Below, piece after piece: positions 42,297 to 64,000 of a stretch of DNA of 64,000 nucleotides. This DNA comes from Acidobacteriota bacterium (GTDB taxonomy: Bacteria > Acidobacteriota > Terriglobia > Acidiferrales > UBA7541), in the NCBI GenBank assembly GCA_013289695.1, contig JABCZK010000013.1, positions 36,906-100,905 of the forward strand. The letters run 5' to 3'. Made by a program: the position numbers and the translations under genes. The number at the start of each line of letters is the position of its first letter. The stretch's first letter is position 1. The notes below the pieces were generated by a model that was not told the origin of the DNA, made no database searches, and worked only from the letters and a program-made list of their open reading frames with translations.

Positions 42297-42878
42297 TCAG
42301 CCAAACTGCGCTTTCCGCGGCGGCAAAGCAAAAGCCGCTTCGCTGAACACTTCGGCGGTAAAGGCCTGCACTCGCGTCGCTGGGTCTTTCCAGGCAGCGC
42401 GTTCCAGACCGGCCTTCACGCACGTTTCTTCCAAGAAGCGTTGCGCTCCCCAGTTGAATTGACTGGCCACTTGCGGCAGCAGCACTCCGCGCAGCCTGCC
42501 TTGGCTCACGACCAGCCCATGCTTGCCCGCTACGATCGCATCCAGCGTCACGTCCTGAAACGCCGCAAGAACCGAAACTTCGATCTCAATCTCGCTCACT
42601 TCTGCCAACCCAACAGGCTCGAAGCGCGAATCGTCCAGCGCAGCAGCCCGCGCGCAGTGCGCCACTACCGCAGCGAGCGCTGCGCGGCCTAGCAGCTGGC
42701 CGACGCAGCCGCGCAGGCGCCCGCGGCGATGCAGTGTGACGAATGCGCCTGCCGGCTGCTCCAAAATCCCTTCGGCGGGAAATTCCTGCAAGGGAGGCTT
42801 GCCTTCAACACCGAGAGTCAGGGCGCTCCGGGCGATCTGCAGCAGCAACTGCTTCTCGCGCTCAGCGAGTGAGGACAT
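42297..42878 (-). CDS. AMMECR1 / AmmeMemoRadiSam system protein A
   Basis: GAFVTLHRRGRLRGCVGQLLG; EIEIEVSVL; LRGVLLPQVASQFNW. Confidence 0.85.
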   Translation of the reverse strand: MSSLAEREKQLLLQIARSALTLGVEGKPPLQEFPAEGILEQPAGAFVTLHRRGRLRGCVGQLLGRAALAAVVAHCARAAALDDSRFEPVGLAEVSEIEIEVSVLAAFQDVTLDAIVAGKHGLVVSQGRLRGVLLPQVASQFNWGAQRFLEETCVKAGLERAAWKDPATRVQAFTAEVFSEAAFALPPRKAQFG

Positions 42879-43491
42879 CCTGTGGCTTTTCTTCCGGCTT
42901 CACGAGCAACGCGCCCCGGCGGCGCTGCTGCACGCGAAAATTAATTTGCGTCCAGAACATTTGGAAGTAATGCCCTGCCGACGCCACTGCGCTCACCACC
43001 ACCATCCACAGCAGCACGGTCCCAACCAGTTTCAACGCCGGATGATTCGCAGTGAGAATCACAGTACATCCCGCCAGCACCTGCAAAATCATTTTCACTT
43101 TTCCCAGCGGCGACGCCGGAATGATCAACCCTTCCACCGACGCAATCTCGCGCAGCCCCATCACCATGAATTCGCGTCCGATGATGATCACCACCATCCA
43201 CGCCTGCATCAATCCCATTTCCACCAGCGAAATAAAAGCGGCGGAAATCAGCAGCTTGTCCGCGATCGGATCCAGCAGAATTCCGAGCGTGGTGATTTCC
43301 TTGCGCGAACGAGCCAGGTAGCCGTCCATCATGTCGGTAGCCGCGGCCATGAGCAAAATCAGCACACCCAGCACTTCGAAATGTATGGGCAATCCCCAGA
43401 AATCAAAATTGGGTTGGCGGGTGAGCAGCACAACAACCAGCAGCGGCACGAAAAAGATCCGCAGGGTCGTCAGGCTGTTGGGCAGATTCAT
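42862..43491 (-). CDS. pgsA: CDP-diacylglycerol-glycerol-3-phosphate 3-phosphatidyltransferase
   Basis: NLPNSLTTLRIFFVPLLV; ATDMMDGYLARSRKEITTLGILLDPIADKLL (CDP-OH-P motif). Confidence 0.93.
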   Translation of the reverse strand: MNLPNSLTTLRIFFVPLLVVVLLTRQPNFDFWGLPIHFEVLGVLILLMAAATDMMDGYLARSRKEITTLGILLDPIADKLLISAAFISLVEMGLMQAWMVVIIIGREFMVMGLREIASVEGLIIPASPLGKVKMILQVLAGCTVILTANHPALKLVGTVLLWMVVVSAVASAGHYFQMFWTQINFRVQQRRRGALLVKPEEKPQDVLTR

Positions 43492-43810
43492 GAAGTCCCC
43501 GGGGAAAAACCCTCGGCTCGCGGGCCAACGAGCATTCGAAAGGTCACTTCACTATAGTCCCGCATTCCGGGCGAGTCAACGGCGGCAGCACAGTCCGCTC
43601 CGAAATTTGCGCCTTTGCGGGAAATACGTACGTGTTGCCTACAAAGGCAAATCCCTATGCTAGTGACGTTTAGAGAACATCCCGCCCCAGACCTGTGCAT
43701 ATTCCACAAGCGCGTAACAATTACCGCCGGGCGCAAAATCGCGCGGTAGTTTGGCCTGGGTGTCGCCATAACCGCTGTATTTGCATCGCGATACAAGTCG
43801 GGTACCAATC

Positions 43811-43911
43811 TATGGGATTTAAAATGTTGATTTTGCTGGGCTTTTTCACCGTTCAGGGGGCTTCTTTATCCACAGTGATATCCACAGGAGCGTTGTGGAT
43901 CGTGTGGATTA
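43811..43911. other. candidate oriC core: AT-rich stretch plus DnaA-box cluster
   Basis: 43811-43848 tatgggatttaaaatgttgattttgctgggcttttt; boxes TTATCCACA 43866-43874 (+, perfect), ATATCCACA 43878-43886 (+), TGTGGATCG 43894-43902 (-), TGTGGATTA 43903-43911 (-). Confidence 0.75.
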
Positions 43912-44500
43912 CCCGGTGCATAACTTGTGGTTTCAGGCGCGGCGTTTCGCGCGATTTGCGGGGTCTTGGTGGGCGAGATGCGCCGAAATGCACGCACGAA
44001 ACATGCTCTTTTCGACCGATCAGAATGGGAGCCCTCCGTTTGTTTTCATTTGGTTGCGACGATTTCTAATCGCGGAGAAGCCGATTAGAAACGGTGTGAT
44101 TCCTGAGTGGTGATGGTTGATTAGTGAGTCGTGCTTGGTCATCCGCGATTCCTGACTTGTGATTCGTGCGACGTCCCCCCGGGACACGTGCCTGGAGGCT
44201 TCTTTGCCTGTGTTAGCGGCTGCCTGCAGGTGGGCGCGGAGGTTCTTGCGACCGCTTCGCGCGGGAGTGGAAGTCACGCACAGCGGGTTTTGCAACGTAG
44301 TGAGCGCAAAGCGATTGTCGCGCGCTTTTCGAAAACGCCGCATCTTTTTTACCCCCATTCCAAGGTAACACTCCGCAGAGGAGAACACAGCTGTACGTTG
44401 GGATGGAAGTGGGACAGGACGATTGGCAACTGCCGAAATGATCACCCATGCTGAACTTTGCCGGGTGGGCGGGGCGTTAAGAGCCGAGTCAGAAATTCGC

Positions 44501-44535
44501 AGTTGAGAGTTGGCAGTTAAAAGTCAAAAGTTAAG
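44501..44535. repeat. degenerate 7-nt tandem repeat, copy 1
   Basis: AGTTGAG AGTTGGC AGTTAAA AGTCAAA AGTTAAG. Confidence 0.7.
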
Positions 44536-44753
44536 ACTGGTTTGTCGCGCGCTGTGACCCGCTGCCGTGGCGCGCAGCGCTGGAAATCTGGTGCGCGGCG
44601 CAGAGTGAAAGGGGGTGCGTTATAAGGTAATCTTACGTCCACAAAGCGGGAACCAAGCAGGTGCGAGGGGCGTCTGAGCAAGCACATGAAACGCAGGCAA
44701 TCTCGATCGGGCGCAGCGGGCATTTGCCGCCTGCGCTCACGGGGATACTGACG

Positions 44754-51984: not shown

Positions 51985-52004
51985 TTGCCGCTTCGTATTT
52001 TTTT

Positions 52005-52505
52005 ATGCTCGAGACAGCGCGGATGCGACTCTTGCCGTGGCAGCCGGACGACTGGCTGCTATTGCGTTCGATCGCGACCGATCCTCAGGTGATGCGCTAC
52101 ATTTCGGACGGCAAACCTTGGCCGGACGAGCGCGTTCGCGAATTTGTTGGGCGGCAAGTTGCGCACTTCGATCGGCTCGGCTATTGCCTCTGGAAACTTC
52201 TGCATAAAGAAACGCCGGAGATGATAGGATTTTGCGGCTTGCAACCGCTGGACGGCACGCCGGAAACTGAAATCGGCTGGTGGCTGGCGCGGGCGTGCTG
52301 GGGACAAGGCTTGGCGACGGAGGCGGCGCGCGCGGCGCTGCAGCATGGATTTGAGCGCGCGGGACTCGCGAGAATTGTGGCGGTCGCGCTGGCCGCGAAT
52401 CGTGCTTCGATTCACGTGATGGAAAAGCTGGGGATGAAGTACGAACGGGAAATGATTCACCGCGGATTCCAGGTGGTCCTGTACGCGGTGAATCGTCCGG
52501 GGTGA
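52005..52505 (+). CDS. GNAT N-acetyltransferase (RimJ/RimL-like)
   Basis: LETARMRLLPWQPDDWLLL; IGWWLARACWGQGLATEAARAALQHGFE. Confidence 0.92.
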   Translation: MLETARMRLLPWQPDDWLLLRSIATDPQVMRYISDGKPWPDERVREFVGRQVAHFDRLGYCLWKLLHKETPEMIGFCGLQPLDGTPETEIGWWLARACWGQGLATEAARAALQHGFERAGLARIVAVALAANRASIHVMEKLGMKYEREMIHRGFQVVLYAVNRPG

Positions 52506-52680
52506 TGATGCGGGGGATTTTACGGCACCGGCCGCAGCCCGAGCTTGCAAGCTGGCGCGGGCGCGTTTCATTTCAGCGGAGGGCGCTGCCGATGTTCGCG
52601 GGAACTGCGCTCCGGCATGGAAGCTGTGCTATTCTAGCTTGGTTCGCGCGAGAGTTTTGTGGCGCTTGCGCGCACACGGT

Positions 52681-52758
52681 CGGGGCGTAGCGCAGCCTGG
52701 CTAGCGCGCCTGGTTCGGGACCAGGAGGTCGAAGGTTCAAATCCTTTCGCCCCGACCA
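52681..52758 (+). tRNA. tRNA-Pro (anticodon CGG)
   Basis: CGGGGCG...CGCCCCG acceptor stem, loop TTCGGGA, GGTTCAAATCC T-arm, encoded CCA. Confidence 0.96.
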
Positions 52759-52783
52759 TTATTTCCCCTCTCGATTCATAACG

Positions 52784-54106
52784 TTACGCTGCGTTTTGCT
52801 GCACGACGGCAAGCTCTAAACTAGGTACATTAGGTACAACATCGGGGGTCTGAGGCGAAATCTCAAATCCCAAGCCGATTTTATCTGCCACTTCTCTTCT
52901 GTATTCCACATCCTCGCGGAGCTTCGAGTAACCGTCTGTCACGGACTCGTCCGCGTGGCCGAGCCAGAAACGAATGAGATCTTCTGGCGTTCGGTTTTTG
53001 CGGAGCCACGTCGTACGGAAACGCCGGAAGGCATGAAAGCCCGCTTTCGGTTGCCCCAACTTTTTCAAGGCGGGGTGCAAGCCACGTCTCAAGAGATTCG
53101 TCTGTGAGAAAGAATTCCCGTTCTTGTTGTTGAACAGGTAGCCGGAAGTACGCTTTCCCACATACTTCTTGAGCATCTCTGCTAGAGCAGGACAGATGTC
53201 CACGTCTCTGCGCCCGCCCTCGGTCTTGAGGAAGTCCTCTAACTTACCTCTGCGGACTTTCTGGCGAACGTATAGAGTTCTGAAGTCGTCCGAGATGTGC
53301 TTATCGACTTCAAGCCCCAATGCTTCTCCAGCGCGGAGCCCCGTTCCACCAAGCAGGGCACAAAACATCTGCTTGTACCCTTTGGAAGACGCGAGAATCC
53401 CGGTGATTACTTCGCTGGTGAAGTGGGGCGTGTTCTGCTTGCTCTTGTCCACCACTGGCATATCGACGAATTCGTGGTTCCATTTGCGAGGGAAGATCTG
53501 CTCGCCTTCCTCGTTAACGGCAGAAGCCACGACCGACTTGACGACCTGCGAGTAGGTGTTGACCGTCTTAGGTGAGAGGCCTCCCTTGACCATTCTTTCA
53601 ACCAGCCCCTTGAGAGCTAGATTCCCCACCGAAGACAGGGGAACATCTCCAAGGTTCGGAAGAATCCATATATCAAGGGCACCTTGCCACCATTCAACGG
53701 TTGCGGGAGCAATGGGCTTGCGCTTTCGTTGTTGCACGTGCTCGATCCACCATGCCGCTTGTTCACGAAACGTCACACCAAGGGAAACACCCTCCGCTTT
53801 GGCAAGGTGCTCTGGTGTATCTGCTCCGCTCGCGGCAATGATTTCTCTTGCTTTCCTTTCCCGCTCGGGTTTCGTCAGGCGTCCAGGACCAGAGATCGGG
53901 CATACCTTTTCGCTTGCATGCATTCGTTCCTCTCGGCCCGGTACGTCCTGCCAAAACCTGACCACGTAGTATTTACCTCTCACTTCAATATAACCACTTT
54001 GACCAGATCGGCGGCTCATGCTCTTGCCTCTTTTCCGCTTTTCTGGCGTCGCTTTCGCGACTGTATCAACGACATCGGCTGACAGCAAGTGTCTGTTCGA
54101 TTCCAT
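52784..54106 (-). CDS. tyrosine-type site-specific integrase
   Basis: GTGLRAGEALGLEV, HAFRRFRTTWLRKN, FWLGHADESVTDGYSKL (R..HxxR..H..Y); ends 25 bp from the tRNA 3' end. Confidence 0.93.
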   Translation of the reverse strand: MESNRHLLSADVVDTVAKATPEKRKRGKSMSRRSGQSGYIEVRGKYYVVRFWQDVPGREERMHASEKVCPISGPGRLTKPERERKAREIIAASGADTPEHLAKAEGVSLGVTFREQAAWWIEHVQQRKRKPIAPATVEWWQGALDIWILPNLGDVPLSSVGNLALKGLVERMVKGGLSPKTVNTYSQVVKSVVASAVNEEGEQIFPRKWNHEFVDMPVVDKSKQNTPHFTSEVITGILASSKGYKQMFCALLGGTGLRAGEALGLEVDKHISDDFRTLYVRQKVRRGKLEDFLKTEGGRRDVDICPALAEMLKKYVGKRTSGYLFNNKNGNSFSQTNLLRRGLHPALKKLGQPKAGFHAFRRFRTTWLRKNRTPEDLIRFWLGHADESVTDGYSKLREDVEYRREVADKIGLGFEISPQTPDVVPNVPSLELAVVQQNAA

Positions 54107-54156
54107 CGTGGCTGCTCAAAATCTGTCAAATTGCGGCATGTGATTCCGGCGCTTTG

Positions 54157-55068
54157 CTAGTGGCTAGGCTCGCGATTGCCCTCGTTCGCAGGAGCTGTCC
54201 CCGCACTGCGCGAAGATGTCTGGGAATTGAGTTCAGCTTGGGCCTTGGCAACTGTGCGCTGGGCATAGTCGTCGGGGTCGTACTTTTCGTGCGCCCGGAA
54301 CTCGGCAATGTCGCGCATGACCTCTTCGGGCGGGAGTCCCCGTGCCAGGGCGCGTTTAGCGTAAGCCCAGTCTCGCTCTGATTGGCTCAATTCACGAGGG
54401 CCTGACGCTGCGGTGCGCTCACGAGACGGATTCCATCTTCCTGGGCCAGAATCCACTGGGTCGGTGCGAAGTCTAAAATCTCGTGTGTGATAGGTGCGGT
54501 CTGTATGGGCGTGGACCACTACTTGAAAGTCCTCCTCGTACTTTTTGTTCGCGAAACCCGGAAGACGGAGCACTCTTGTCGAATCGGTTGCTGCGGGATC
54601 GCCATCGAATTCCCGCGCCAAGGCGTGCAGGAATGCTTCGGCTTGCTCTTGAGTGACTCCCTCGACCTTCCATATCACCTGAAATTTGTCGGGCGACGTG
54701 CTCAGGACGTAGCTTGGGGTCGGGACAAGATCCGACTGCTGGATGGCCGCGAGGGATTTGCTGCCGTCGTGGTCGAGGTCGATATAGAGATGCTTGATCG
54801 CTTGTATGTCATCCTTCGTTCGCGTGCGGGCTTCGGGTTTCAGCGGATTCATGCCGAGGTAGATGTCCGAGCCGTCTCGCTCATTCTTGTAGCGTAGCCA
54901 GTCCTGAAATTGCGGGGCCGCGATTCTTACAGCCGTGCTGATGCGCTGAAGAGTATCTCCGCGCCTTCGATTCCGCACTAGCACTGCCAAGCGGTCCGAG
55001 GGATCAAAATTCGCGCGAACGTAGTTTGGCGCGGTGATTTCGTTCTTGTCTGGGTTCTCAGTATTCAT
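54157..55068 (-). CDS. RepB-like DNA primase domain protein
   Basis: IKHLYIDLDHDGSKSL; PSYVLSTSPDKFQVIWKVEG; TDSTRVLRLPGFANKK. Confidence 0.78.
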   Translation of the reverse strand: MNTENPDKNEITAPNYVRANFDPSDRLAVLVRNRRRGDTLQRISTAVRIAAPQFQDWLRYKNERDGSDIYLGMNPLKPEARTRTKDDIQAIKHLYIDLDHDGSKSLAAIQQSDLVPTPSYVLSTSPDKFQVIWKVEGVTQEQAEAFLHALAREFDGDPAATDSTRVLRLPGFANKKYEEDFQVVVHAHTDRTYHTRDFRLRTDPVDSGPGRWNPSRERTAASGPRELSQSERDWAYAKRALARGLPPEEVMRDIAEFRAHEKYDPDDYAQRTVAKAQAELNSQTSSRSAGTAPANEGNREPSH

Positions 55069-56039
55069 GGCTTTTCTCCCTGATGCACATACATAGCGCA
55101 GTAGTCGAAAAGGTCGGCGTCCGGGTCGTAACTGTTGATTTCGAGGACTTCGGAGATGTACCGGCGTCCCGGTCTGCGCTCAAGCTGGATCACGACATTT
55201 AGTGAGTCAGCGATGTTCGTCTTGATGGCGCGATACGGCAGGTCCACGCCGCTCTGGAGCACGCAACTTGTGAATCGAGCGAGGCCCTGTTTGGCCGAGT
55301 TGGCGTGAATGGTTGAAAGCGTGCCAGAGTGCCCTGTGTTCAGAAGTTGCAATAGATCGAAGGCTTCGCCGCCGCGAATCTCGCCGAGGATTATCCGGTC
55401 GGGACGGTGCCGAAGAGCTGCCTTGAGAAGATCCCGGATCGCCACTGCCGGCAGGCCATTCTGAGCCTGCCGCGCTTCGAATCGGACGAGGTTCGGCTGG
55501 GCCAACTGAATCTCTGCGGTGTCCTCAATCAGAAGGACCCGATCATCCTGAGGTATGAATTTTCCGAGGATGTTGAGCATCGTCGTTTTGCCGGTCCCGG
55601 TTCCGCCGCTAATGAGGATGTTTTTCCGAGCGAGGACATACTCCTTGAGTCGATCTGCTAGATTGCCGTCGAGTGTTCCGGCTCTGATCAGATCGTCCAT
55701 TTCAAAATGGCGTGTATTGAACTTACGGATGGTCAATGTGACCCCGCTCAAACTGCACGGTGGGATGACGGCGGCAACGCGGCTTCCGTCGGGCAGGCGC
55801 GAATCGAGAATGGGCTTCGATTCCGAGATGTCATCACCCAAGCGGCGGGCAATGTTTTTCACAGCAACCATGAGGGATTTCTCGCCTAGAGACACGTCTT
55901 GTACTTGCCGAAGCATTCCTGCACGCTCAATGAAGATTCGGTCCGGGCCGTTCACCATGACCTCGCTGATCGAATCGTCGAGGATGAGGTGCTCGATTGG
56001 TTTCAGGAACGGAAGGATTATTTCGAATCCGTTCATCAC
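55065..56039 (-). CDS. VirB11/TrbB-like secretion ATPase
   Basis: NILISGGTGTGKTTMLNIL; LIEDTAEIQL; RPDRIILGEIRGGEAFDLLQLLNTGHSGTLSTIHANS. Confidence 0.92.
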   Translation of the reverse strand: MMNGFEIILPFLKPIEHLILDDSISEVMVNGPDRIFIERAGMLRQVQDVSLGEKSLMVAVKNIARRLGDDISESKPILDSRLPDGSRVAAVIPPCSLSGVTLTIRKFNTRHFEMDDLIRAGTLDGNLADRLKEYVLARKNILISGGTGTGKTTMLNILGKFIPQDDRVLLIEDTAEIQLAQPNLVRFEARQAQNGLPAVAIRDLLKAALRHRPDRIILGEIRGGEAFDLLQLLNTGHSGTLSTIHANSAKQGLARFTSCVLQSGVDLPYRAIKTNIADSLNVVIQLERRPGRRYISEVLEINSYDPDADLFDYCAMYVHQGEKP

Positions 56040-58033
56040 AGCTCTCCATCAGCGACTTGCTTGAAATAGGATTTGTTGGCGTCGTTGTAGTAGGGCTTCA
56101 GGTAGCAGAATGTCGGCGGCATTGGATTGAAGCCGTCGTATGCGATGGCAACGGACTGCGCGTTCTTTAGTTCGGTGAAGGTCTTCATGTCGAAACGGAA
56201 GTCGGAGTGGGGGTAATAACTCTTCGAGGCCGTAATATTGGCCTTGTGTGAGATGGCCTTGCCGGTGAGCAGGCTTACACTCGCATCGTGCCCGCTCTCG
56301 GAAAGGTTGTAGCTAACCTTGAGTTGGTCTTCCCGACCGCAGAGCTCGCTTGCCGTGCGAGCCGAGAAGTCGTCTGAGAGAGCCAGAAATATCTTCGTGC
56401 GGAAGGTCTGAACCAGCGTTCGCCAAGTCTCTCCTGGGAGCGCCGATTTCAGAGAGCTGATGCTCTGAGTAGCGATGATGGGGATGCACTTGGGTTGACG
56501 GGACAGACTGAAGAACTTCTCGTCGCCGGTCGGTTCGTTCTCTCCGACCGTGGCGAAGTGCTGGTATTCGTCGCACATGAAGAGGACCTGACGGAAGTGC
56601 TTTTCCTTATTGGCTTCGATGATGGGCACACGATTCAAAACGGCCCGCTCGAAATCGAGCTTCATCATGACGCCGAGGGCCTTCGCTAGACCGGGATTCA
56701 TTCCGATAGGGAAATTCAGGCAGCAGACCTTTCCGCTTTCTATGAGCCAACTGAATGACGGCAGAGGTTTGCCAAAGCGGTAGTCGGCGTTGGCCTTCGG
56801 GTCGTAGCACTCCGGCGGCGGGCAGAAGCTTCTTTTTACCGCTGGGTTGTCGTCGAACAGTGACAGGAAAACCGAGATGCCTTCGACGATAGAGGTTCGC
56901 AGTTTCGGCTCGATGCGCCGCCAATCGTTGTAGAACCAGCGCTTGACGGCTTGCAGTTGTTCGAGCCGGTCAGGATCGGCCTTATCGAAGCCTGATTCGC
57001 TGAGGTAATCGCAATCGATGGATTTGCTCTGCAGAAACCGCCGTGCTCCAGGAGTGTCTTTGGCTCTGTACATCTCGATGGGTTCATCGAGAGCGAACTC
57101 GAAGAGTTTCAAGTCGTCGAAGTGTGCTCTGTAGTCAGTCGCGGAAACGAGGAGGAAATAGCGTTCTTCGAGCCGCCTTTCCGCATCCTGAATCTTCTTC
57201 TCCAAAATGTCCGGGGAGATGGCGGACTCATAGACATCGAACAAGGTCACGTAGTCGAAGGCAACCTTGTGCAGAAGAATGATGAATTTGACAAGGTTTG
57301 TGTACGCCTGCTGCCAGAAGGGTTCCTTGCCCTTCCCGAATAAATTGTTCAGGAGCGACGCAATGCTGTAGGCCAGGGCATAGGCGTCGAGGTCGTTGTG
57401 AAGCGGGTTGTAACGGTATTGCGAGTCGAGACTAATCTCGATGTAGTCGTCCTCTCTGCCGTGCCGAGCTAGAATCTCTCTGATCCTGTGGCAGAAGTCG
57501 CCTTTCACTTCGAGAACGAGACCGCCAATCCTCTTTTCTTTGTCTCCAGCACAATAGGCAAAAATCTGCTCCGCGAAAGGGTACATGCAGCAACTCGTTT
57601 TTCCGGTCCCTACGGCTCCGAAAATGGCTATTCCGGTGAACAGTCCGCGCTCGGGTACGACCAGCCAGTGAGGGGCAGCTGCCGGTACAGTCTTGCGGGG
57701 GTTGTGAACCTCGCCCAACACGATAGACAGATCAGGACGCTCGCGCGGATCGGGGTAGGCCGGCAAGCGTCCCGGCCTAATGCGTTGCGGAATCTTGAGC
57801 GCGAAGATGTAAAGACCTGAGAGCAAGACCGAGTAGCCGATGTAGGGAGTGGTGTAGAGGAAAACGACGTAGGAATACTTGAATCCGAGGAACACGGGCC
57901 GCGCCCAGACAAACATCAACTCGAAGAACAGGTTTCCCTCGGGGAAAGGCATCTTTATATAGAGGACCATCCCTGTCGCCGCTGCCAGGAGGCAGGCAAC
58001 AAAGTTCTTCGAGTTGAGAATCCGTTGGATCAT
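56036..58033 (-). CDS. VirD4/TraG-like coupling ATPase
   Basis: N-terminal TM segments; FGAVGTGKTSCCMYPF; VLFMCDEYQHFATVGE; IPIIATQSISSLKSAL. Confidence 0.85.
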   Translation of the reverse strand: MIQRILNSKNFVACLLAAATGMVLYIKMPFPEGNLFFELMFVWARPVFLGFKYSYVVFLYTTPYIGYSVLLSGLYIFALKIPQRIRPGRLPAYPDPRERPDLSIVLGEVHNPRKTVPAAAPHWLVVPERGLFTGIAIFGAVGTGKTSCCMYPFAEQIFAYCAGDKEKRIGGLVLEVKGDFCHRIREILARHGREDDYIEISLDSQYRYNPLHNDLDAYALAYSIASLLNNLFGKGKEPFWQQAYTNLVKFIILLHKVAFDYVTLFDVYESAISPDILEKKIQDAERRLEERYFLLVSATDYRAHFDDLKLFEFALDEPIEMYRAKDTPGARRFLQSKSIDCDYLSESGFDKADPDRLEQLQAVKRWFYNDWRRIEPKLRTSIVEGISVFLSLFDDNPAVKRSFCPPPECYDPKANADYRFGKPLPSFSWLIESGKVCCLNFPIGMNPGLAKALGVMMKLDFERAVLNRVPIIEANKEKHFRQVLFMCDEYQHFATVGENEPTGDEKFFSLSRQPKCIPIIATQSISSLKSALPGETWRTLVQTFRTKIFLALSDDFSARTASELCGREDQLKVSYNLSESGHDASVSLLTGKAISHKANITASKSYYPHSDFRFDMKTFTELKNAQSVAIAYDGFNPMPPTFCYLKPYYNDANKSYFKQVADGEL

Positions 58034-58272
58034 GCTGTTTTCCGAATGGCCCCGGCGTCACTGAGGGGCTTGCTCTGCGCGGTGATTTTCTGCTCCGCCC
58101 GCCACTTTCTGTATTCCGGGTCCCTCCAAAGAATCTTTTTCAGGACAGAGTTCGCCACATGGTCGGGCGTGCATTCGACGAATCGGGCGTAGTCGTCCAG
58201 CAGCTCGTTCGTTGGCTGTTCTAGCTTGATCGAACGGCTGACCAGCTCTGGTGGTTTCTTGATGTAGGCCAT
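58030..58272 (-). CDS. small protein, possible ribbon-helix-helix-like
   Basis: MAYIKKPPELVSRSIKLEQPTNELLDDYARFVECTPDHVANSVLKKIL; coupled to the VirD4-like gene. Confidence 0.65.
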   Translation of the reverse strand: MAYIKKPPELVSRSIKLEQPTNELLDDYARFVECTPDHVANSVLKKILWRDPEYRKWRAEQKITAQSKPLSDAGAIRKTA

Positions 58273-58329
58273 TTTCCTTTCCTCCTGTGGTTCAGTTTCT
58301 TGCTCGAAATCCTGGACGCGGCCACATGT

Positions 58330-58418
58330 GTCACGCGCTGCGCGTGACTGAGGCGGGAGCGACCCCACGAATTCCAGTGACGCACCGTGCGTCAAAGGGT
58401 GGGGTCGCTCCCGCCTCA
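58330..58418. repeat. three-palindrome hairpin cluster
   Basis: GTCACGCG-CTG-CGCGTGAC (58330-58348); TGAGGCGGGAGCGACCCCAC (58349-58368) perfectly complementary to GTGGGGTCGCTCCCGCCTCA (58399-58418); loop contains TGACGCA-CCG-TGCGTCA. Confidence 0.95.
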
Positions 58419-59555
58419 TCCGAATTTGGCCGCGTCCTTCCGGGCTTTCTCGTCACGGGGTATCTCTCTTGTTTCTCTTGAGTTCGCTTCAGCCAAGGGC
58501 TGAAGCGCGAAATCTTTGCTCCTGAAGCCTGGTACTGAAGAGCGCTTCAGCGTCTTCCATGCAGCACCATCGTCGCGGCGATTGCCTCTGACGAGGAACG
58601 TTTGAAAGCCTGCCTTTCGGTTAGGAGTGGCTGCTTGAAACTGTCGGCGCACATCATCGTCGGTGAGTTTTCCCGAGCACCAAGCCGCGTGAAGAGAATC
58701 GAAGCGGTCGCCTTGAAACCGGCGTGTTGCATCGTTCAACCACTCGATCTCGTTGTTCGAGAAGAGCGCGTACTTCTTCAGGTCCCACGCTTTCCGAAGA
58801 CGGAAGTACCGCAGAACATCCGCCGCAATCTCTGTTGAAATCGGTGCCTTTACCACCGAGGAGAAGCATTTCTCCGCATCGGCAAAATGGACCGAGGAAT
58901 TCGATATCAACAAGAAGTGGAATTCGTTCAGTTCTTGGAAGAGCGGACGATAGGCATTCAGGTGGTTCGCAAAGCCCGCGACACTGGGGTAGCCGGGGTC
59001 TACGTACGACAACGTGACCACAGGGGAGAAAGGGGCGCGTGACGAGTCAAGGAAGAGGGGGTATTTGTCGACAAAATATCGGAGTGTTGGCTCGCAGCTC
59101 GAACTGCCTTCGTAAGTCTTGGTGGGAAGAGAAGTCTTTGGAAGCCCAAGCTCCTTGCAGAAATACCCAACCTTCTGCTCTTCCGTTTCAAGGTAATCAT
59201 ACTGTTGGTTAGCGATGACGAAATCGAGCAGCACGAGCCGGGTCCTAATGAATTCGACCGAGTGTCGGCGGCGGTTACGAAGATTTTCCTTTCCGATTTC
59301 AGCATATAGCTTCTTCGAAAAGAGGTGATAGACACCGCCAGTGTCTTGGTATTCGCGCCAGGTTGCATGGCCCCGGCTTTCGAGCTTCTTCGAGAGCTGA
59401 TCCGTTCGGTAGCCCCAACTGGCGCCGGTCAGGTCCAGGAACTGGCGCGGAACGAAGTACCCAGAATGCGTTGCCACGATATAGAGAAAACGGGCTTCGT
59501 CCGCGGTATAGCCGAGAGCTTTGATGGCAGCGATATCGTGCTCTGCGATCTTCAT
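58416..59555 (-). CDS. uncharacterised island protein, putative N-terminal winged-helix
   Basis: ALGYTADEARFLYIVATHSGYFVPRQFLDLTG; 379 aa; 4-nt overlap with the upstream gene. Confidence 0.7.
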   Translation of the reverse strand: MKIAEHDIAAIKALGYTADEARFLYIVATHSGYFVPRQFLDLTGASWGYRTDQLSKKLESRGHATWREYQDTGGVYHLFSKKLYAEIGKENLRNRRRHSVEFIRTRLVLLDFVIANQQYDYLETEEQKVGYFCKELGLPKTSLPTKTYEGSSSCEPTLRYFVDKYPLFLDSSRAPFSPVVTLSYVDPGYPSVAGFANHLNAYRPLFQELNEFHFLLISNSSVHFADAEKCFSSVVKAPISTEIAADVLRYFRLRKAWDLKKYALFSNNEIEWLNDATRRFQGDRFDSLHAAWCSGKLTDDDVRRQFQAATPNRKAGFQTFLVRGNRRDDGAAWKTLKRSSVPGFRSKDFALQPLAEANSRETREIPRDEKARKDAAKFG

Positions 59556-60487
59556 AGGTTGAGAATCTCCGCCGTCAGTTCGCGATGGTCGAGCACACGC
59601 CGCAATCGGTCGGCGTCGCTGCGCGAAGCGTAGAGGGAGAACCCCGCACGGACTTTCTCGGCCAAGTGGCCTGGGCGGTAGTGCTCGGTCGCAAGTTCGA
59701 GGTCCACGCGGGCTATTTCTCCCTCGCGTGTCTCGTACTCAATGCGGAGGTCGGGGACGGGAATTTTCTCGCCCACAACTTGGAGGGCGTGACGAGATGC
59801 GATTTCTTGTCTGGATTCAGTCCCGAACGTCGCAAAATCCCGGTTGAGCTTCTTCTTCAGTTCAAAATCGAGAACGACGCGGAGATTCTTTCCTCCTTGG
59901 TCGAGGATTCTGCTCGCCTCTTTCTGATAAAGCCGGTAGATGTCCGCGTCGTGGTTCGTTTCCTTCGGCTTGACGAAGCCGTAATAAGTGGACTGGCCAT
60001 CGGAAGCGAAGCGGTTTGCGCGGAGCAATCTGTGCCCTTCCTTCGTCAGGGTCAGCATCTCGCGGCGGCTCGCTTCCGGTCCTTCAAATGCCTCTTGCCG
60101 GACGAGGCCCTGCTGCGCGAGATTCCGAATGTCGTGCTCCATTTCTTCCCGATGATCCTGATAGGCATGTGTCGCGAGGTCTTCGGTGGCAATCACACGG
60201 AACTTCCCCAACTCGCTGAGGGTATGTACTTCAGACTCGCGCAACCGGTACGCCCGATCCCGCTCATAAAACACGGTGCGCAGGTCCTGGGACCGCGCAC
60301 TGTCGGGGCGAGCGTCGCGCGGGGTCGCAGTGTCCCGATCAATCTGAGGGTTTCCGCCTGGGCTGTGGCGTGGCTCGGGGTGCTTCGTTTCCGGTTCAGG
60401 AGTTCGCCCACGGGAGGCAGATTCGTCCGTTCGAAGATCTTCAAATTCACCGGGCGTGAAATCACGGGACATTTCAGTGCTCTTCAT
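59552..60487 (-). CDS. replication-relaxation-like protein
   Basis: SELGKFRVIATEDLATHAYQDHREEMEHDIRNLAQQGLVRQE...LTLTKEGHRLLRAN; helical DNA-binding N-term plus DLELATEHY segment. Confidence 0.6.
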   Translation of the reverse strand: MKSTEMSRDFTPGEFEDLRTDESASRGRTPEPETKHPEPRHSPGGNPQIDRDTATPRDARPDSARSQDLRTVFYERDRAYRLRESEVHTLSELGKFRVIATEDLATHAYQDHREEMEHDIRNLAQQGLVRQEAFEGPEASRREMLTLTKEGHRLLRANRFASDGQSTYYGFVKPKETNHDADIYRLYQKEASRILDQGGKNLRVVLDFELKKKLNRDFATFGTESRQEIASRHALQVVGEKIPVPDLRIEYETREGEIARVDLELATEHYRPGHLAEKVRAGFSLYASRSDADRLRRVLDHRELTAEILNL

Positions 60488-60709
60488 CCTCCATCGGGGG
60501 CGGTACCGGCGAGTGGCCCGCCGTGACCTGTTTCGTGCCTTAGGAGGCTGGAGCGGATGGCAACGCGTGTGACAGGAGAGAAGTTGGCGACTGGCGCAGC
60601 CGTGTGCTAGCGCAGGCCGACTCAGAGACTAAATGGAAGGCGACATCTATGGTGGCTTATTACCCTCTCTATTGACAGCGCGGAGGCGACAGAAATTATC
60701 TCCGCCTCT

Positions 60710-63235
60710 TTAGCGCGCCCGTGCGGGGAGATTCTCAAATACCTTCTGCGCCTCCTCGCGGGTAATCACGGTGTCGTACAGCCCAATTTCCTCTTCGCCG
60801 TGCTTGTTAATGCCGGTGTAGCTGAGGCTGGCATCCTCATAGCGCTTGAATTTGTAGACGGCGTCGTTCATCAGCGCGCTGTTGAACAGTCCCAGGCTGA
60901 CAAGCAACTCGAAATCCTTTAGGGTCAAGCCCGTGACCTTTTTGAATAGGCCGGGCTCGAGCTGCGTGATCACATCTTTCAGAGACCGCTCGCGATAGTC
61001 GGTTAAGTACATGAAGATTGGGACGCGTGTCGCGAACTTGATGAGCTTCTCTTGAATTTGTTTCCGCAATGTCTTGTATTCTTTCTCCTGTTGAGTTAGC
61101 TCCTTCCTCTCCTTGTCGGATAGCTCCTCGTCATTGGCTTCCTTGCGGGCCTTCTTCACGGCCTCCGATTTGTTGATGATGGTCTCGATCTCTTGATTGA
61201 GATTGCGAAAAGCCTCGATGCTCATGAGGGCATCCATGGCCTTCTTGTTATTCATCAGGCGGCGCAAAGTGTCGTTGTCCACGTTGACCAGTAACGCGCT
61301 CTCCCAGCGCCGCGCCAGGAGGGTGGCGGTTGTGCCGCTCATCGCCATCTCCAGAATCCCGGCAGCGTCAATTTGCTTCATGGAACTGCCGTCGTATGCG
61401 AGCACAGGCAGAAAGCTAATGAACTCCGCCACCTTCTGTTCCGGGTTTGTCTCGTCGAGGTTCAACCGACAACTGTAATCTGCAATCTGCCGCAACGCTC
61501 TGTCTGGAGCAAAATCGAAGACGTAACACTCTTCTTTGATGATCTGTTCTTTATTGGGCGAGTCGCCGTCCGGGTTCCGCACGGTCCAAGGCGATTGAAC
61601 ACGGAATGCTGCCTGAAAGTATGTTTCTGGGCTGGATGAGTTGCGAAGCATGAAAATGCCAGTCCATGGTTTCACAGTCACGCCTGTCGTGAGTTTGCCG
61701 CAGGAAAGAGTTATAGTCTTCGACCTCAGCGGCTCGTCCATGGCGTCCAACACCGGAGGCAGAGCCGCAACGCCGATGCCGGCGGCGTTCCCCGCCGCGA
61801 CGACAATTTTGTAATCGTGATAGAAGCCGTTCTGCTTTTTCGCCAGCAGGTTGTTCATTGCGTAGCAGGAAGCCACGCTGGGAAGGAACCAGAACGTGTG
61901 TGAAAGCACGCTCAGAAGCCGAGCGTCTGAGTAGGGCATCGGCGGTTTATGCACACCTAGTTTTAAGTTATCAACAGTGGTCGGCAGAAACGACCCGCGA
62001 ATTAGGTCCAGCCACTTCTGAACTTCGTCCTCATACTTGAACGTCGCCTTTTCGCCAACTCCCTCGGCTGAGAAGAACACGTTCAAGTCGAACTCGTTGA
62101 ACTCGCCCTGCATCGCGATTTCCCGGATTGCGTCTGGGAGTTGATAGGTCATGAGCACCATGCGGGGCAATGCGGCGTACGGATTGTTGGCACCCTTCCA
62201 ATCCCGCTTCGACCGTTGCTCATCGGAATAAGTCCAGTTGTAGATCTGCTCTTCGATGAACTCGCCGGAGGCAATCGCTCGGAAGGGGGTACCGGATAGA
62301 TAAAGATAAGCATCCGTTGTGATCGGCATCATTTCTTCGTCAAAATCCTCGATGCCTTCGCCTTTCCCGAATTCAACCTCCTTCTTGTCCTCGGCTTCGA
62401 AGAGCTCTTTAGCATTCTCCCGCCATGCCCCGTAATGGTATTCGTCGAGGATCACGCAGTCCCAATTCGTGGAGTGCACCCATTCGTTTTTCGTCTTGAT
62501 GCCGCCGGTGTTTGGGTTACGCCCCAGGTAATTTTGAAACGAGCCAAAACAGACAAAGGGTTTCTTTTTGTCGGCGTTCGCGTACGACAAACCCCCAGGT
62601 GAAATGAACTGCCAGCCTTTGAAGTCCACGTGAGTCTTCAAGTCTTCTTCCCAGGCGCTTTGCACTGCCGGCTTGAAAGTCAGGACAAGAACTTTTCGCC
62701 ATCCCATTCTCTTTGCCAACTGATACGCTGCGAAGGTCTTTCCAAAACGCATCTTCGCATTCCATAGAAAGTGCGGTGGCTTGTTCCGGTTGACCTTTTC
62801 TTCGCGCCAACTGGCAAAGTAGGCGGCGGTTTTTTCGACAGCCGCTTTCTGCTCTGGCCGCATTGCAAAGTCAAGTGACCGGTTCTCCTCGTTCAGTTGG
62901 CCGTCCCGCACGGCGATGATCGCCGCCTTGACTTTATCCACCGCGCATCGAAACCACTCACCGTCAGGATTCTTCACTCCATTGAGTCGGAGCATCCGAT
63001 GTACATCGTGGTCAGTAAATACCGTTCCGTCATTCCGCATGGCGGGCTCTTCCAGGACGATTCGGTAAGGGAGCTTGCCGGGACGTAGCGTCGGATACTG
63101 CTGCGCAACGCGACTCTGCGTATCCACGGTTGTATAACCGACTTTCAGCAGGCCCGCATACTGCGGGTTCGTATCCTCGTAAGCGTAGACAGTTGGGCGC
63201 GATGCAGGGCGCGGAGGGAAGAAACCGTCACTCAT
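60710..63235 (-). CDS. T5orf172/GIY-YIG-like domain fused to DExH helicase
   Basis: N-term VYAYEDTNPQYAGLLKVGYTTVDTQSRVAQQYPTL...DHDVHRMLRLNGVKNPDGEWF; helicase KMRFGKTFAAYQLAKRM, CVILDEYHYG, LYLSGTPFRA, YFQAAFRVQSPW. Confidence 0.82.
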   Translation of the reverse strand: MSDGFFPPRPASRPTVYAYEDTNPQYAGLLKVGYTTVDTQSRVAQQYPTLRPGKLPYRIVLEEPAMRNDGTVFTDHDVHRMLRLNGVKNPDGEWFRCAVDKVKAAIIAVRDGQLNEENRSLDFAMRPEQKAAVEKTAAYFASWREEKVNRNKPPHFLWNAKMRFGKTFAAYQLAKRMGWRKVLVLTFKPAVQSAWEEDLKTHVDFKGWQFISPGGLSYANADKKKPFVCFGSFQNYLGRNPNTGGIKTKNEWVHSTNWDCVILDEYHYGAWRENAKELFEAEDKKEVEFGKGEGIEDFDEEMMPITTDAYLYLSGTPFRAIASGEFIEEQIYNWTYSDEQRSKRDWKGANNPYAALPRMVLMTYQLPDAIREIAMQGEFNEFDLNVFFSAEGVGEKATFKYEDEVQKWLDLIRGSFLPTTVDNLKLGVHKPPMPYSDARLLSVLSHTFWFLPSVASCYAMNNLLAKKQNGFYHDYKIVVAAGNAAGIGVAALPPVLDAMDEPLRSKTITLSCGKLTTGVTVKPWTGIFMLRNSSSPETYFQAAFRVQSPWTVRNPDGDSPNKEQIIKEECYVFDFAPDRALRQIADYSCRLNLDETNPEQKVAEFISFLPVLAYDGSSMKQIDAAGILEMAMSGTTATLLARRWESALLVNVDNDTLRRLMNNKKAMDALMSIEAFRNLNQEIETIINKSEAVKKARKEANDEELSDKERKELTQQEKEYKTLRKQIQEKLIKFATRVPIFMYLTDYRERSLKDVITQLEPGLFKKVTGLTLKDFELLVSLGLFNSALMNDAVYKFKRYEDASLSYTGINKHGEEEIGLYDTVITREEAQKVFENLPARAR

Positions 63236-64000
63236 TGTCTTCTTCCATCGGGCGAACAACCTTGTCGATGAACGCGATCTCGCTAGCGGAAATGCCATAT
63301 TTCGCGTAGAGGTCCTCGTCCGTCCACCGCTTTGTCCACTTCTGAGTTGGCACGAAGGAGTAAACCTTGCGCGTGACATGTTGGGATGGTTTGTGCAGAA
63401 GAATTAGTAGGCGAGTTAGCTGACAGCTGAGGTAGGACAACACGCTTTCAGCTTGATTCTTGGAGTCGAACGGTCCGATGCAGAGGTAGGTTTCTGAAGA
63501 AATGGTGCCCGGTGCTCCGAGGAACGGCGTGCTTATGATCCTGTGCGGATAGGTGTCCTTATTCCCAGTCCCGGGCGCAGCATAGCCCGCAAAAACTTTC
63601 CACTTGTCGATAAGTTCAGTGCCGGTCGTGATGGATTTCCTAGGCGTGTATCCCGTTCCGCCGTTTTGATAGACCAGCAGGTCACCGGCGCGCTTTGTCG
63701 GCTTGCCATTGAAGGTCGTGTCTAGCCCGAAGGGCTTTCTGGAGCTAACCAACTGATCGAAACGTTTGCTTTCAGGGAGCGCAAGCGAGCCGGTTTTTCC
63801 GTTCTCAGCGACGACGACCTTCTTGAGAATCGACAGGCCCTCATTGAAACGAATGAATACGTCAACACCCTTTTCAAGAAGCGGACGGCTGGCGGTCGAG
63901 GTCGGCCAGTCCTTGTAACGAGTGGTGACTTGGCAGGGTCCGGGATTGTCGCGGTCCCAGAGGAAATAGCAAACGCCACCCTTGAGACCAATACCCGGAA
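63228..64000 (-). CDS. Eco57I-like restriction-modification methylase, C-terminal part (truncated by window)
   Basis: Frame stays open to the edge upstream of the listed ORF start: KGGVCYFLWDRDNPGPCQVTTRYKDWPTSTASRPLLEKGVDVFIRFNEGLSILKKVVVAENGKTGSLALPESKRFDQLVSSRKPFG; overlaps helicase start. Confidence 0.72.
   Translation of the reverse strand, partial: PGIGLKGGVCYFLWDRDNPGPCQVTTRYKDWPTSTASRPLLEKGVDVFIRFNEGLSILKKVVVAENGKTGSLALPESKRFDQLVSSRKPFGLDTTFNGKPTKRAGDLLVYQNGGTGYTPRKSITTGTELIDKWKVFAGYAAPGTGNKDTYPHRIISTPFLGAPGTISSETYLCIGPFDSKNQAESVLSYLSCQLTRLLILLHKPSQHVTRKVYSFVPTQKWTKRWTDEDLYAKYGISASEIAFIDKVVRPMEEDNE

What the first reader, a model, noticed from the sequence alone, without database searches (positions are those of the whole stretch)
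43492..44753. Probable chromosomal replication origin between pgsA and a glycosyltransferase, not next to dnaA
Seen: about 1.2 kb without a convincing gene between divergent genes. It contains four DnaA-box-like 9-mers within 46 bp (43866-43911): one perfect TTATCCACA, two with one mismatch and one with two. They are arranged two forward then two reverse, with the last two directly abutting. A short AT-rich stretch lies just left (43811-43848). Hand counts on a few 60-nt rows suggest the + strand is C-rich to the left (24001: C25/G15; 34321: C18/G12; 36361: C25/G15; 43681: C23/G12) and G-rich to the right (43921: G25/C11; 50041: G18/C10; 50581: G25/C14). This holds for genes on either strand. 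Known: oriC normally combines DnaA boxes, an AT-rich unwinding element and a negative-to-positive GC-skew switch.
Basis: partly seen in the sequence, partly recalled or inferred. Interest (0 to 1): 0.78.

Follow-up and report, generated by a model that had tools for sequence, protein, structure and literature searches.

The report
DnaA boxes on multi-switch bacterial chromosome
The suspected replication origin is a real, evolutionarily conserved cluster of DnaA-binding sites at a sharp DNA-strand-composition switch, but the same soil bacterium has at least a dozen other equally sharp switches, so the site cannot be called 'the' origin; the bigger surprise is a chromosome whose composition looks as if copying starts at many places.

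Summary
Four DnaA-like boxes lie in 46 bp (43866-43911), the only such cluster in 1.58 Mb scanned, and the cumulative GC-skew minimum of the 100.9-kb contig is 138 bp away. A 12-bp-period pair of boxes (TTTTCCACA-nnn-ATTTCCACA) upstream of pgsA is kept in 31 of 41 pgsA-bearing genomes of the order, so it is a genuine conserved site. 'The chromosomal origin' is not established. The genome (an unnamed Acidobacteria MAG, 64 contigs) has a sawtooth GC skew: 13 sharp minus-to-plus switches of at least 0.12 in 1.58 Mb, several steeper than this one, separated by gradual declines. It is the same in genes on either strand (r = 0.87). Congeners also show the sawtooth, but their pgsA boxes are not at a switch. 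Here the switch coincides with a lineage-specific junction: hflX, the ancestral neighbour, is on another contig, and the flanking glycosyltransferase gene is found in none of 40 relatives. Two other conserved DnaA-box sites (dnaA promoter; a one-per-genome palindrome) compete as oriC. Best reading: a conserved DnaA-binding element, possibly one initiation site among many, in a family whose skew looks like multi-origin replication. Replication itself was not measured.

The parts
43866..43911 (.). Four DnaA-box-like 9-mers: 43866-43874 (+, TTATCCACA), 43878-43886 (+, ATATCCACA), 43894-43902 (-, CGATCCACA), 43903-43911 (-, TAATCCACA)
   Evidence: only such cluster in 1.58 Mb of the genome
43866..43886 (+). 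The evolutionarily conserved part: two direct boxes with 12-bp period (order consensus TTTTCCACA-nnn-(A/T)TTTCCACA), 374 bp upstream of pgsA
   Evidence: within 500 bp upstream of pgsA in 31 of 41 pgsA-bearing genomes of the order; flanks not conserved
43811..43848 (.). AT-rich stretch next to the boxes (68% AT), possible unwinding element
   Evidence: top 0.04% of 38-mers of the window; function inferred only
43728..43728 (.). Minimum of cumulative GC skew of contig C13 (minus-to-plus switch; 10-kb step D = 0.25)
42862..43491 (-). pgsA-like CDP-alcohol phosphatidyltransferase (PF01066), downstream of the conserved pair
   Evidence: E = 5.7e-36
44098..44163 (.). Dispersed GATTAGTGA/GTGATTCGTG-type repeat near the presumed rearrangement junction; a similar stretch follows hflX on contig C36
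44661..45989 (+). GT2 glycosyltransferase (PF13641), no match at E <= 1e-60 in 40 relatives; replaces hflX as the neighbour

Best explanation
The element is a conserved DnaA-binding site upstream of pgsA: a pair of direct boxes ancestral to the order, extended to four boxes here. Shown: the sequence, its conservation, its roughly fixed distance to pgsA in most genomes, and the skew switch. Inferred: DnaA binds it cooperatively and uses it either as an origin-like site or to tune pgsA. It lies on a chromosome whose strand composition is a sawtooth with many sharp minus-to-plus switches about 50-200 kb apart and gradual declines between them. The simplest cause of a gene-strand-independent sawtooth is that forks leave many initiation zones and merge at variable places between them (inferred, not measured). 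This locus may be one such zone, but its switch coincides with a lineage-specific junction, so even that is unproven, and nothing singles it out as the one oriC.
For: Box cluster unique in 1.58 Mb. Pair kept at pgsA in 31 of 41 genomes of the order while flanks diverge; reversed-pattern controls 0 or 1 per genome. Sawtooth: 19 up-steps >= 0.12 against 5 down-steps in this genome plus relatives; 15 of 16 contigs have a larger maximum up-step than down-step, sign test p = 5e-4; GC3 skew of + and - genes correlates r = 0.87 over 80 windows; the fourfold-site profile goes from about -0.35 to about +0.35 across switches and passes zero 40-60 kb away. E. coli control over oriC with the same code: largest step 0.08, no sawtooth.
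Against: No replication data. Switches share no motif or repeat and are not conserved in colinear blocks of congeners. Genes are not co-oriented with the presumed fork direction (43%). AT skew hardly follows GC skew. The genome is an incomplete MAG in 64 contigs; only 35% of it was read.
Confidence: 0.55

Rival explanations
1. This is the single DnaA-dependent oriC of the chromosome; the other skew switches have other causes.
For: Only skew switch read that carries a DnaA-box cluster; cumulative minimum 138 bp from the boxes; adjacent AT-rich stretch; conserved pair in the order.
Against: Steeper switches elsewhere; no switch at the same box pair in relatives G001, G002, G004, G012, G049; dnaA-dnaN-gyrB has its own box cluster; the switch lies at a lineage-specific junction.
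Confidence: 0.2
2. oriC is at dnaA (C5:77334-77442: TTTTCCACA, ATTTCCACA, an inverted box and TAATCCACA) or at the one-per-genome palindromic element (C11:89585, TTTTCAACA-nnnn-TGTTGAAAA preceded by (T/A)TTTCCACA-nnn). The pgsA boxes are a DnaA-controlled promoter or titration site; acidic phospholipids made through PgsA can reactivate DnaA in vitro, which would make a feedback loop.
For: Classical dnaA-dnaN-gyrB order with boxes; palindromic element once per genome in nearly all of the family, with an AT-rich flank; roughly constant 290-475 bp distance of the pair to pgsA in most genomes; phospholipid-DnaA link discussed in PMC10235992, which itself calls the role ambiguous.
Against: Neither site lies at a skew switch in this genome; in L020-L022 the pair is inverted and only about 150 bp from pgsA; no promoter or expression data.
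Confidence: 0.4
3. The skew switch in the window is only a junction between two blocks of opposite skew, made by recombination at a dispersed repeat or by a misjoin in the metagenome assembly.
For: hflX normally follows the boxes but is on contig C36 here; the GT2 gene is absent from 40 relatives; similar dispersed repeats lie at 44098-44163 and just after hflX; the closest relative, G002, has positive skew on both sides of its boxes.
Against: Many other sharp switches exist, and at C11:~50k the gene order is colinear with G004 across the switch; rearrangement alone predicts as many sharp down-steps as up-steps, which is not seen.
Confidence: 0.35
4. The sawtooth marks fixed fork-fusion sites (lagging strand G-rich) or hot spots of recombination-dependent replication rather than DnaA origins.
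For: No shared DnaA boxes or any motif at switches; slight excess of genes head-on to the usual sign convention; only GC skew, not AT skew, follows.
Against: Would need sharp termini with dispersed starts, a layout not known in bacteria (own knowledge); the gene-orientation excess is small and operons are not independent.
Confidence: 0.15

Closest known systems
Bacterial oriC (DnaA boxes + AT-rich unwinding element + skew switch; Ori-Finder/DoriC criteria, PMC4403523)
   Same: Cluster of at least 3 boxes with at most 1 mismatch to TTATCCACA, AT-rich neighbour, skew switch
   Different: Not beside dnaA, dnaN, gidA, hemE or parB; the switch is one of many and is not shared by relatives
Multi-origin, DnaA-independent replication of Synechocystis and Nostoc (PMC7198777)
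   Same: Bacterial chromosomes reported to start at many sites; irregular skew; dnaA still present in those species
   Different: There the skew is described as irregular or collapsed; here it is strong (GC3 up to about 0.5) with sharp localised switches and gradual declines
Human skew N-domains (PMC3320577)
   Same: Upward jumps with linear decline crossing zero mid-domain, read as gradients of fork polarity
   Different: Domains roughly 10 times shorter, in a dnaA-bearing bacterium
DnaA regulatory or titration sites away from oriC (datA, DARS, autoregulated promoters; PMC10235992)
   Same: Short clusters of DnaA boxes outside the origin, linked to initiation control
   Different: No sequence relation tested; position upstream of pgsA not reported in the papers searched

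Membership tests
Bacterial oriC | At least three DnaA boxes with at most 1 mismatch, clustered | tested here: met
   three such boxes plus one with 2 mismatches in 46 bp
Bacterial oriC | AT-rich unwinding element | tested here: inconclusive
   38-bp stretch of 68% AT at 43811-43848; no 13-mer repeats or DnaA-trio tested
Bacterial oriC | Unique minus-to-plus skew switch of the chromosome | tested here: not met
   at least 13 switches >= 0.12 in 35% of the genome
Bacterial oriC | Next to a replication gene (dnaA, dnaN, gidA, hemE, parB) | tested here: not met
   neighbours are pgsA and a GT2 gene; dnaA-dnaN-gyrB on C5
Bacterial oriC | Same site at a skew switch in relatives | tested here: not met
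   G001, G004, G012, G049, G002
Bacterial oriC | Replication starts there | not testable with these tools
   no reads or cultures
Multi-origin chromosome (skew N-domains) | Sharp upward skew jumps with gradual declines, excess over downward jumps | tested here: met
Multi-origin chromosome (skew N-domains) | Skew independent of gene orientation | tested here: met
   r = 0.87; fourfold sites
Multi-origin chromosome (skew N-domains) | Several replication starts measured | not testable with these tools
   needs marker frequency or Okazaki sequencing

The most novel reading that the evidence does not exclude
A family of dnaA-bearing Acidobacteria replicates its chromosome from tens of initiation zones, about one per 100 kb, whose positions shift between species of one genus, leaving a eukaryote-like sawtooth of strand composition.
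Probability: 0.45. Interest if true: 0.9.

Novelty: new variant of a known kind. Interest (0 to 1): 0.62.

Why it matters
Natural bacterial chromosomes are taken to have one origin; PMC4403523 saw no firm evidence of two functional origins on one chromosome, and cyanobacteria are the reported exception (PMC7198777). A strong, gene-independent sawtooth in a dnaA-bearing soil lineage makes the question directly testable by coverage profiling of growing cells. It also warns that skew-based origin finding, growth-rate (peak-to-trough) estimates and skew-based assembly checks may fail for such genomes. The pgsA box pair is a separate, simple test of a DnaA-phospholipid link.

Tried and rejected
Gene orientation as cause of the skew: rejected. 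Inversions or rearrangements as cause of all switches: rejected because up-steps exceed down-steps and C11:~50k is colinear in G004 across the switch. Shared motif, repeat or island at switches: none found. dnaA locus at a switch: no. Palindromic TTTTCAACA element at switches: no in this genome. Noncoding RNA in the gap: none in Rfam. Named relatives by genome contigs: one hit, Acidobacteria bacterium isolate palsa_312. Mean coding density dips only slightly at switches.

Full report
What the window is. The window is positions 36906-100905 of contig C13 (100,905 bp) of an incomplete genome (4.5 Mb, 64 contigs, 87% complete).

The four boxes, their order and the two abutting reverse boxes are as described. 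Such a cluster occurs once in the 1.58 Mb of this genome that I could read. A looser scan of the first 1.07 Mb found only one other three-box group, around the start of dnaA. The gap between pgsA and the glycosyltransferase has no coding-like ORF and no known RNA. The cumulative skew minimum of the contig is at window 43728.

The boxes are conserved. In 30 pgsA loci of the family, the region upstream of pgsA aligns poorly except for two direct boxes with a 12-bp period, TTTTCCACA-nnn-(A/T)TTTCCACA, present in most of them. With at most one mismatch the pair lies within 500 bp upstream of pgsA in 31 of 41 pgsA-bearing genomes of the order: 18 of 19 in the genus, 8 of 16 elsewhere in the family, and 5 of 6 in other families of the order. 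It is in none of 18 other genomes of the class (counted by hand). Reversed-pattern controls gave 0 matches in 60 of 61 genomes and 1 in the other. So this is a real site, presumably for DnaA. The two reverse boxes were not seen in the relatives' alignment.

But the skew switch is not special to it. The genome has a sawtooth GC skew. Sharp minus-to-plus steps lie at C5:~123k, C1:~14k and ~178k, C2:~167k, C3:~160k and ~194k, C4:~84k and ~157k, C6:~16k and ~128k, C7:~75k, C11:~51k and here, with gradual declines between. GC3 skew is the same in genes of either strand (r = 0.87 over 80 windows), so transcription is not the cause. At fourfold sites the mean goes from about -0.35 before to about +0.35 after a switch and returns to zero in 40-60 kb. 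The largest upward step exceeds the largest downward one in 15 of 16 contigs (p = 5e-4) of this genome and relatives G001, G004, G012, G023 and G049. The same code over E. coli oriC gives a largest step of 0.08 and no sawtooth. Random inversions would give equal numbers of sharp steps up and down and no gradients; many initiation zones with variable merging points would give this shape, as in human N-domains (PMC3320577).

Switches and boxes do not go together. No other switch read has such a box cluster and the switches share no motif or repeat. In G001, G004, G012 and G049 the pgsA pair lies in flat skew, and in G002 positive skew continues on both sides. Switch positions differ even in colinear blocks: C13 and G012:C1 share gene order over 70 kb but have opposite skew in places, and the switch at C11:~50k is within a block colinear with G004.

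This switch lies on a junction. In relatives hflX follows the boxes. Here hflX is on contig C36 and a glycosyltransferase gene not matched in 40 relatives takes its place. A dispersed repeat lies at 44098-44163, and a similar stretch follows hflX. Recombination, or an assembly misjoin, may have joined a negative to a positive block.

Rival origins. dnaA-dnaN-gyrB on C5 has TTTTCCACA, ATTTCCACA, an inverted box and TAATCCACA around the dnaA start. A palindrome TTTTCAACA-nnnn-TGTTGAAAA, usually preceded by TTTTCCACA-nnn, occurs once per genome in nearly all of the family and in some genomes outside it; in this genome it has an AT-rich flank. Neither is at a switch here.

Conclusion. A genuine DnaA-box element and a genuine skew switch, but 'the' oriC is not shown. 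The more surprising result is the sawtooth itself, which a single origin does not explain. Replication was not measured; the genome is fragmented and 65% of it was not read; and no control from outside the order could be read beyond a 75-kb stretch of G033 and E. coli.

Noticed in passing
G000 contigs C1-C7, C11, C13: Sawtooth GC skew with sharp up-steps about every 50-200 kb, independent of gene strand; also in relatives G001, G004, G012, G023, G049.
   Followed up: yes
G000:C11:89585; also in L085, L108, L109, L110, L111: Palindromic element TTTTCAACA-nnnn-TGTTGAAAA, usually preceded by TTTTCCACA-nnn, once per genome in nearly all of the family and in parts of other families of the class; neighbour genes differ between some genera; function unknown, oriC candidate.
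   Followed up: partly
G000:C5:77334-77442: DnaA-box group (TTTTCCACA, ATTTCCACA, inverted box, TAATCCACA) around the start of dnaA in a dnaA-dnaN-gyrB cluster, not at a skew switch.
   Followed up: partly
window 44000-44165: Dispersed degenerate GTGATTAGTGA-type repeat family, 72-86% alike over 36-91 bp, at several places in this genome and congeners.
   Followed up: partly
G000, fourfold sites around switches: GC skew swings by about 0.7 across switches while AT skew hardly changes, unlike a simple cytosine-deamination pattern.
   Followed up: no
window 52001-64000: Lower GC (0.54-0.57) than the rest of the window (mostly 0.57-0.64), mostly minus-strand genes; possibly part of an acquired block.
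   Followed up: no
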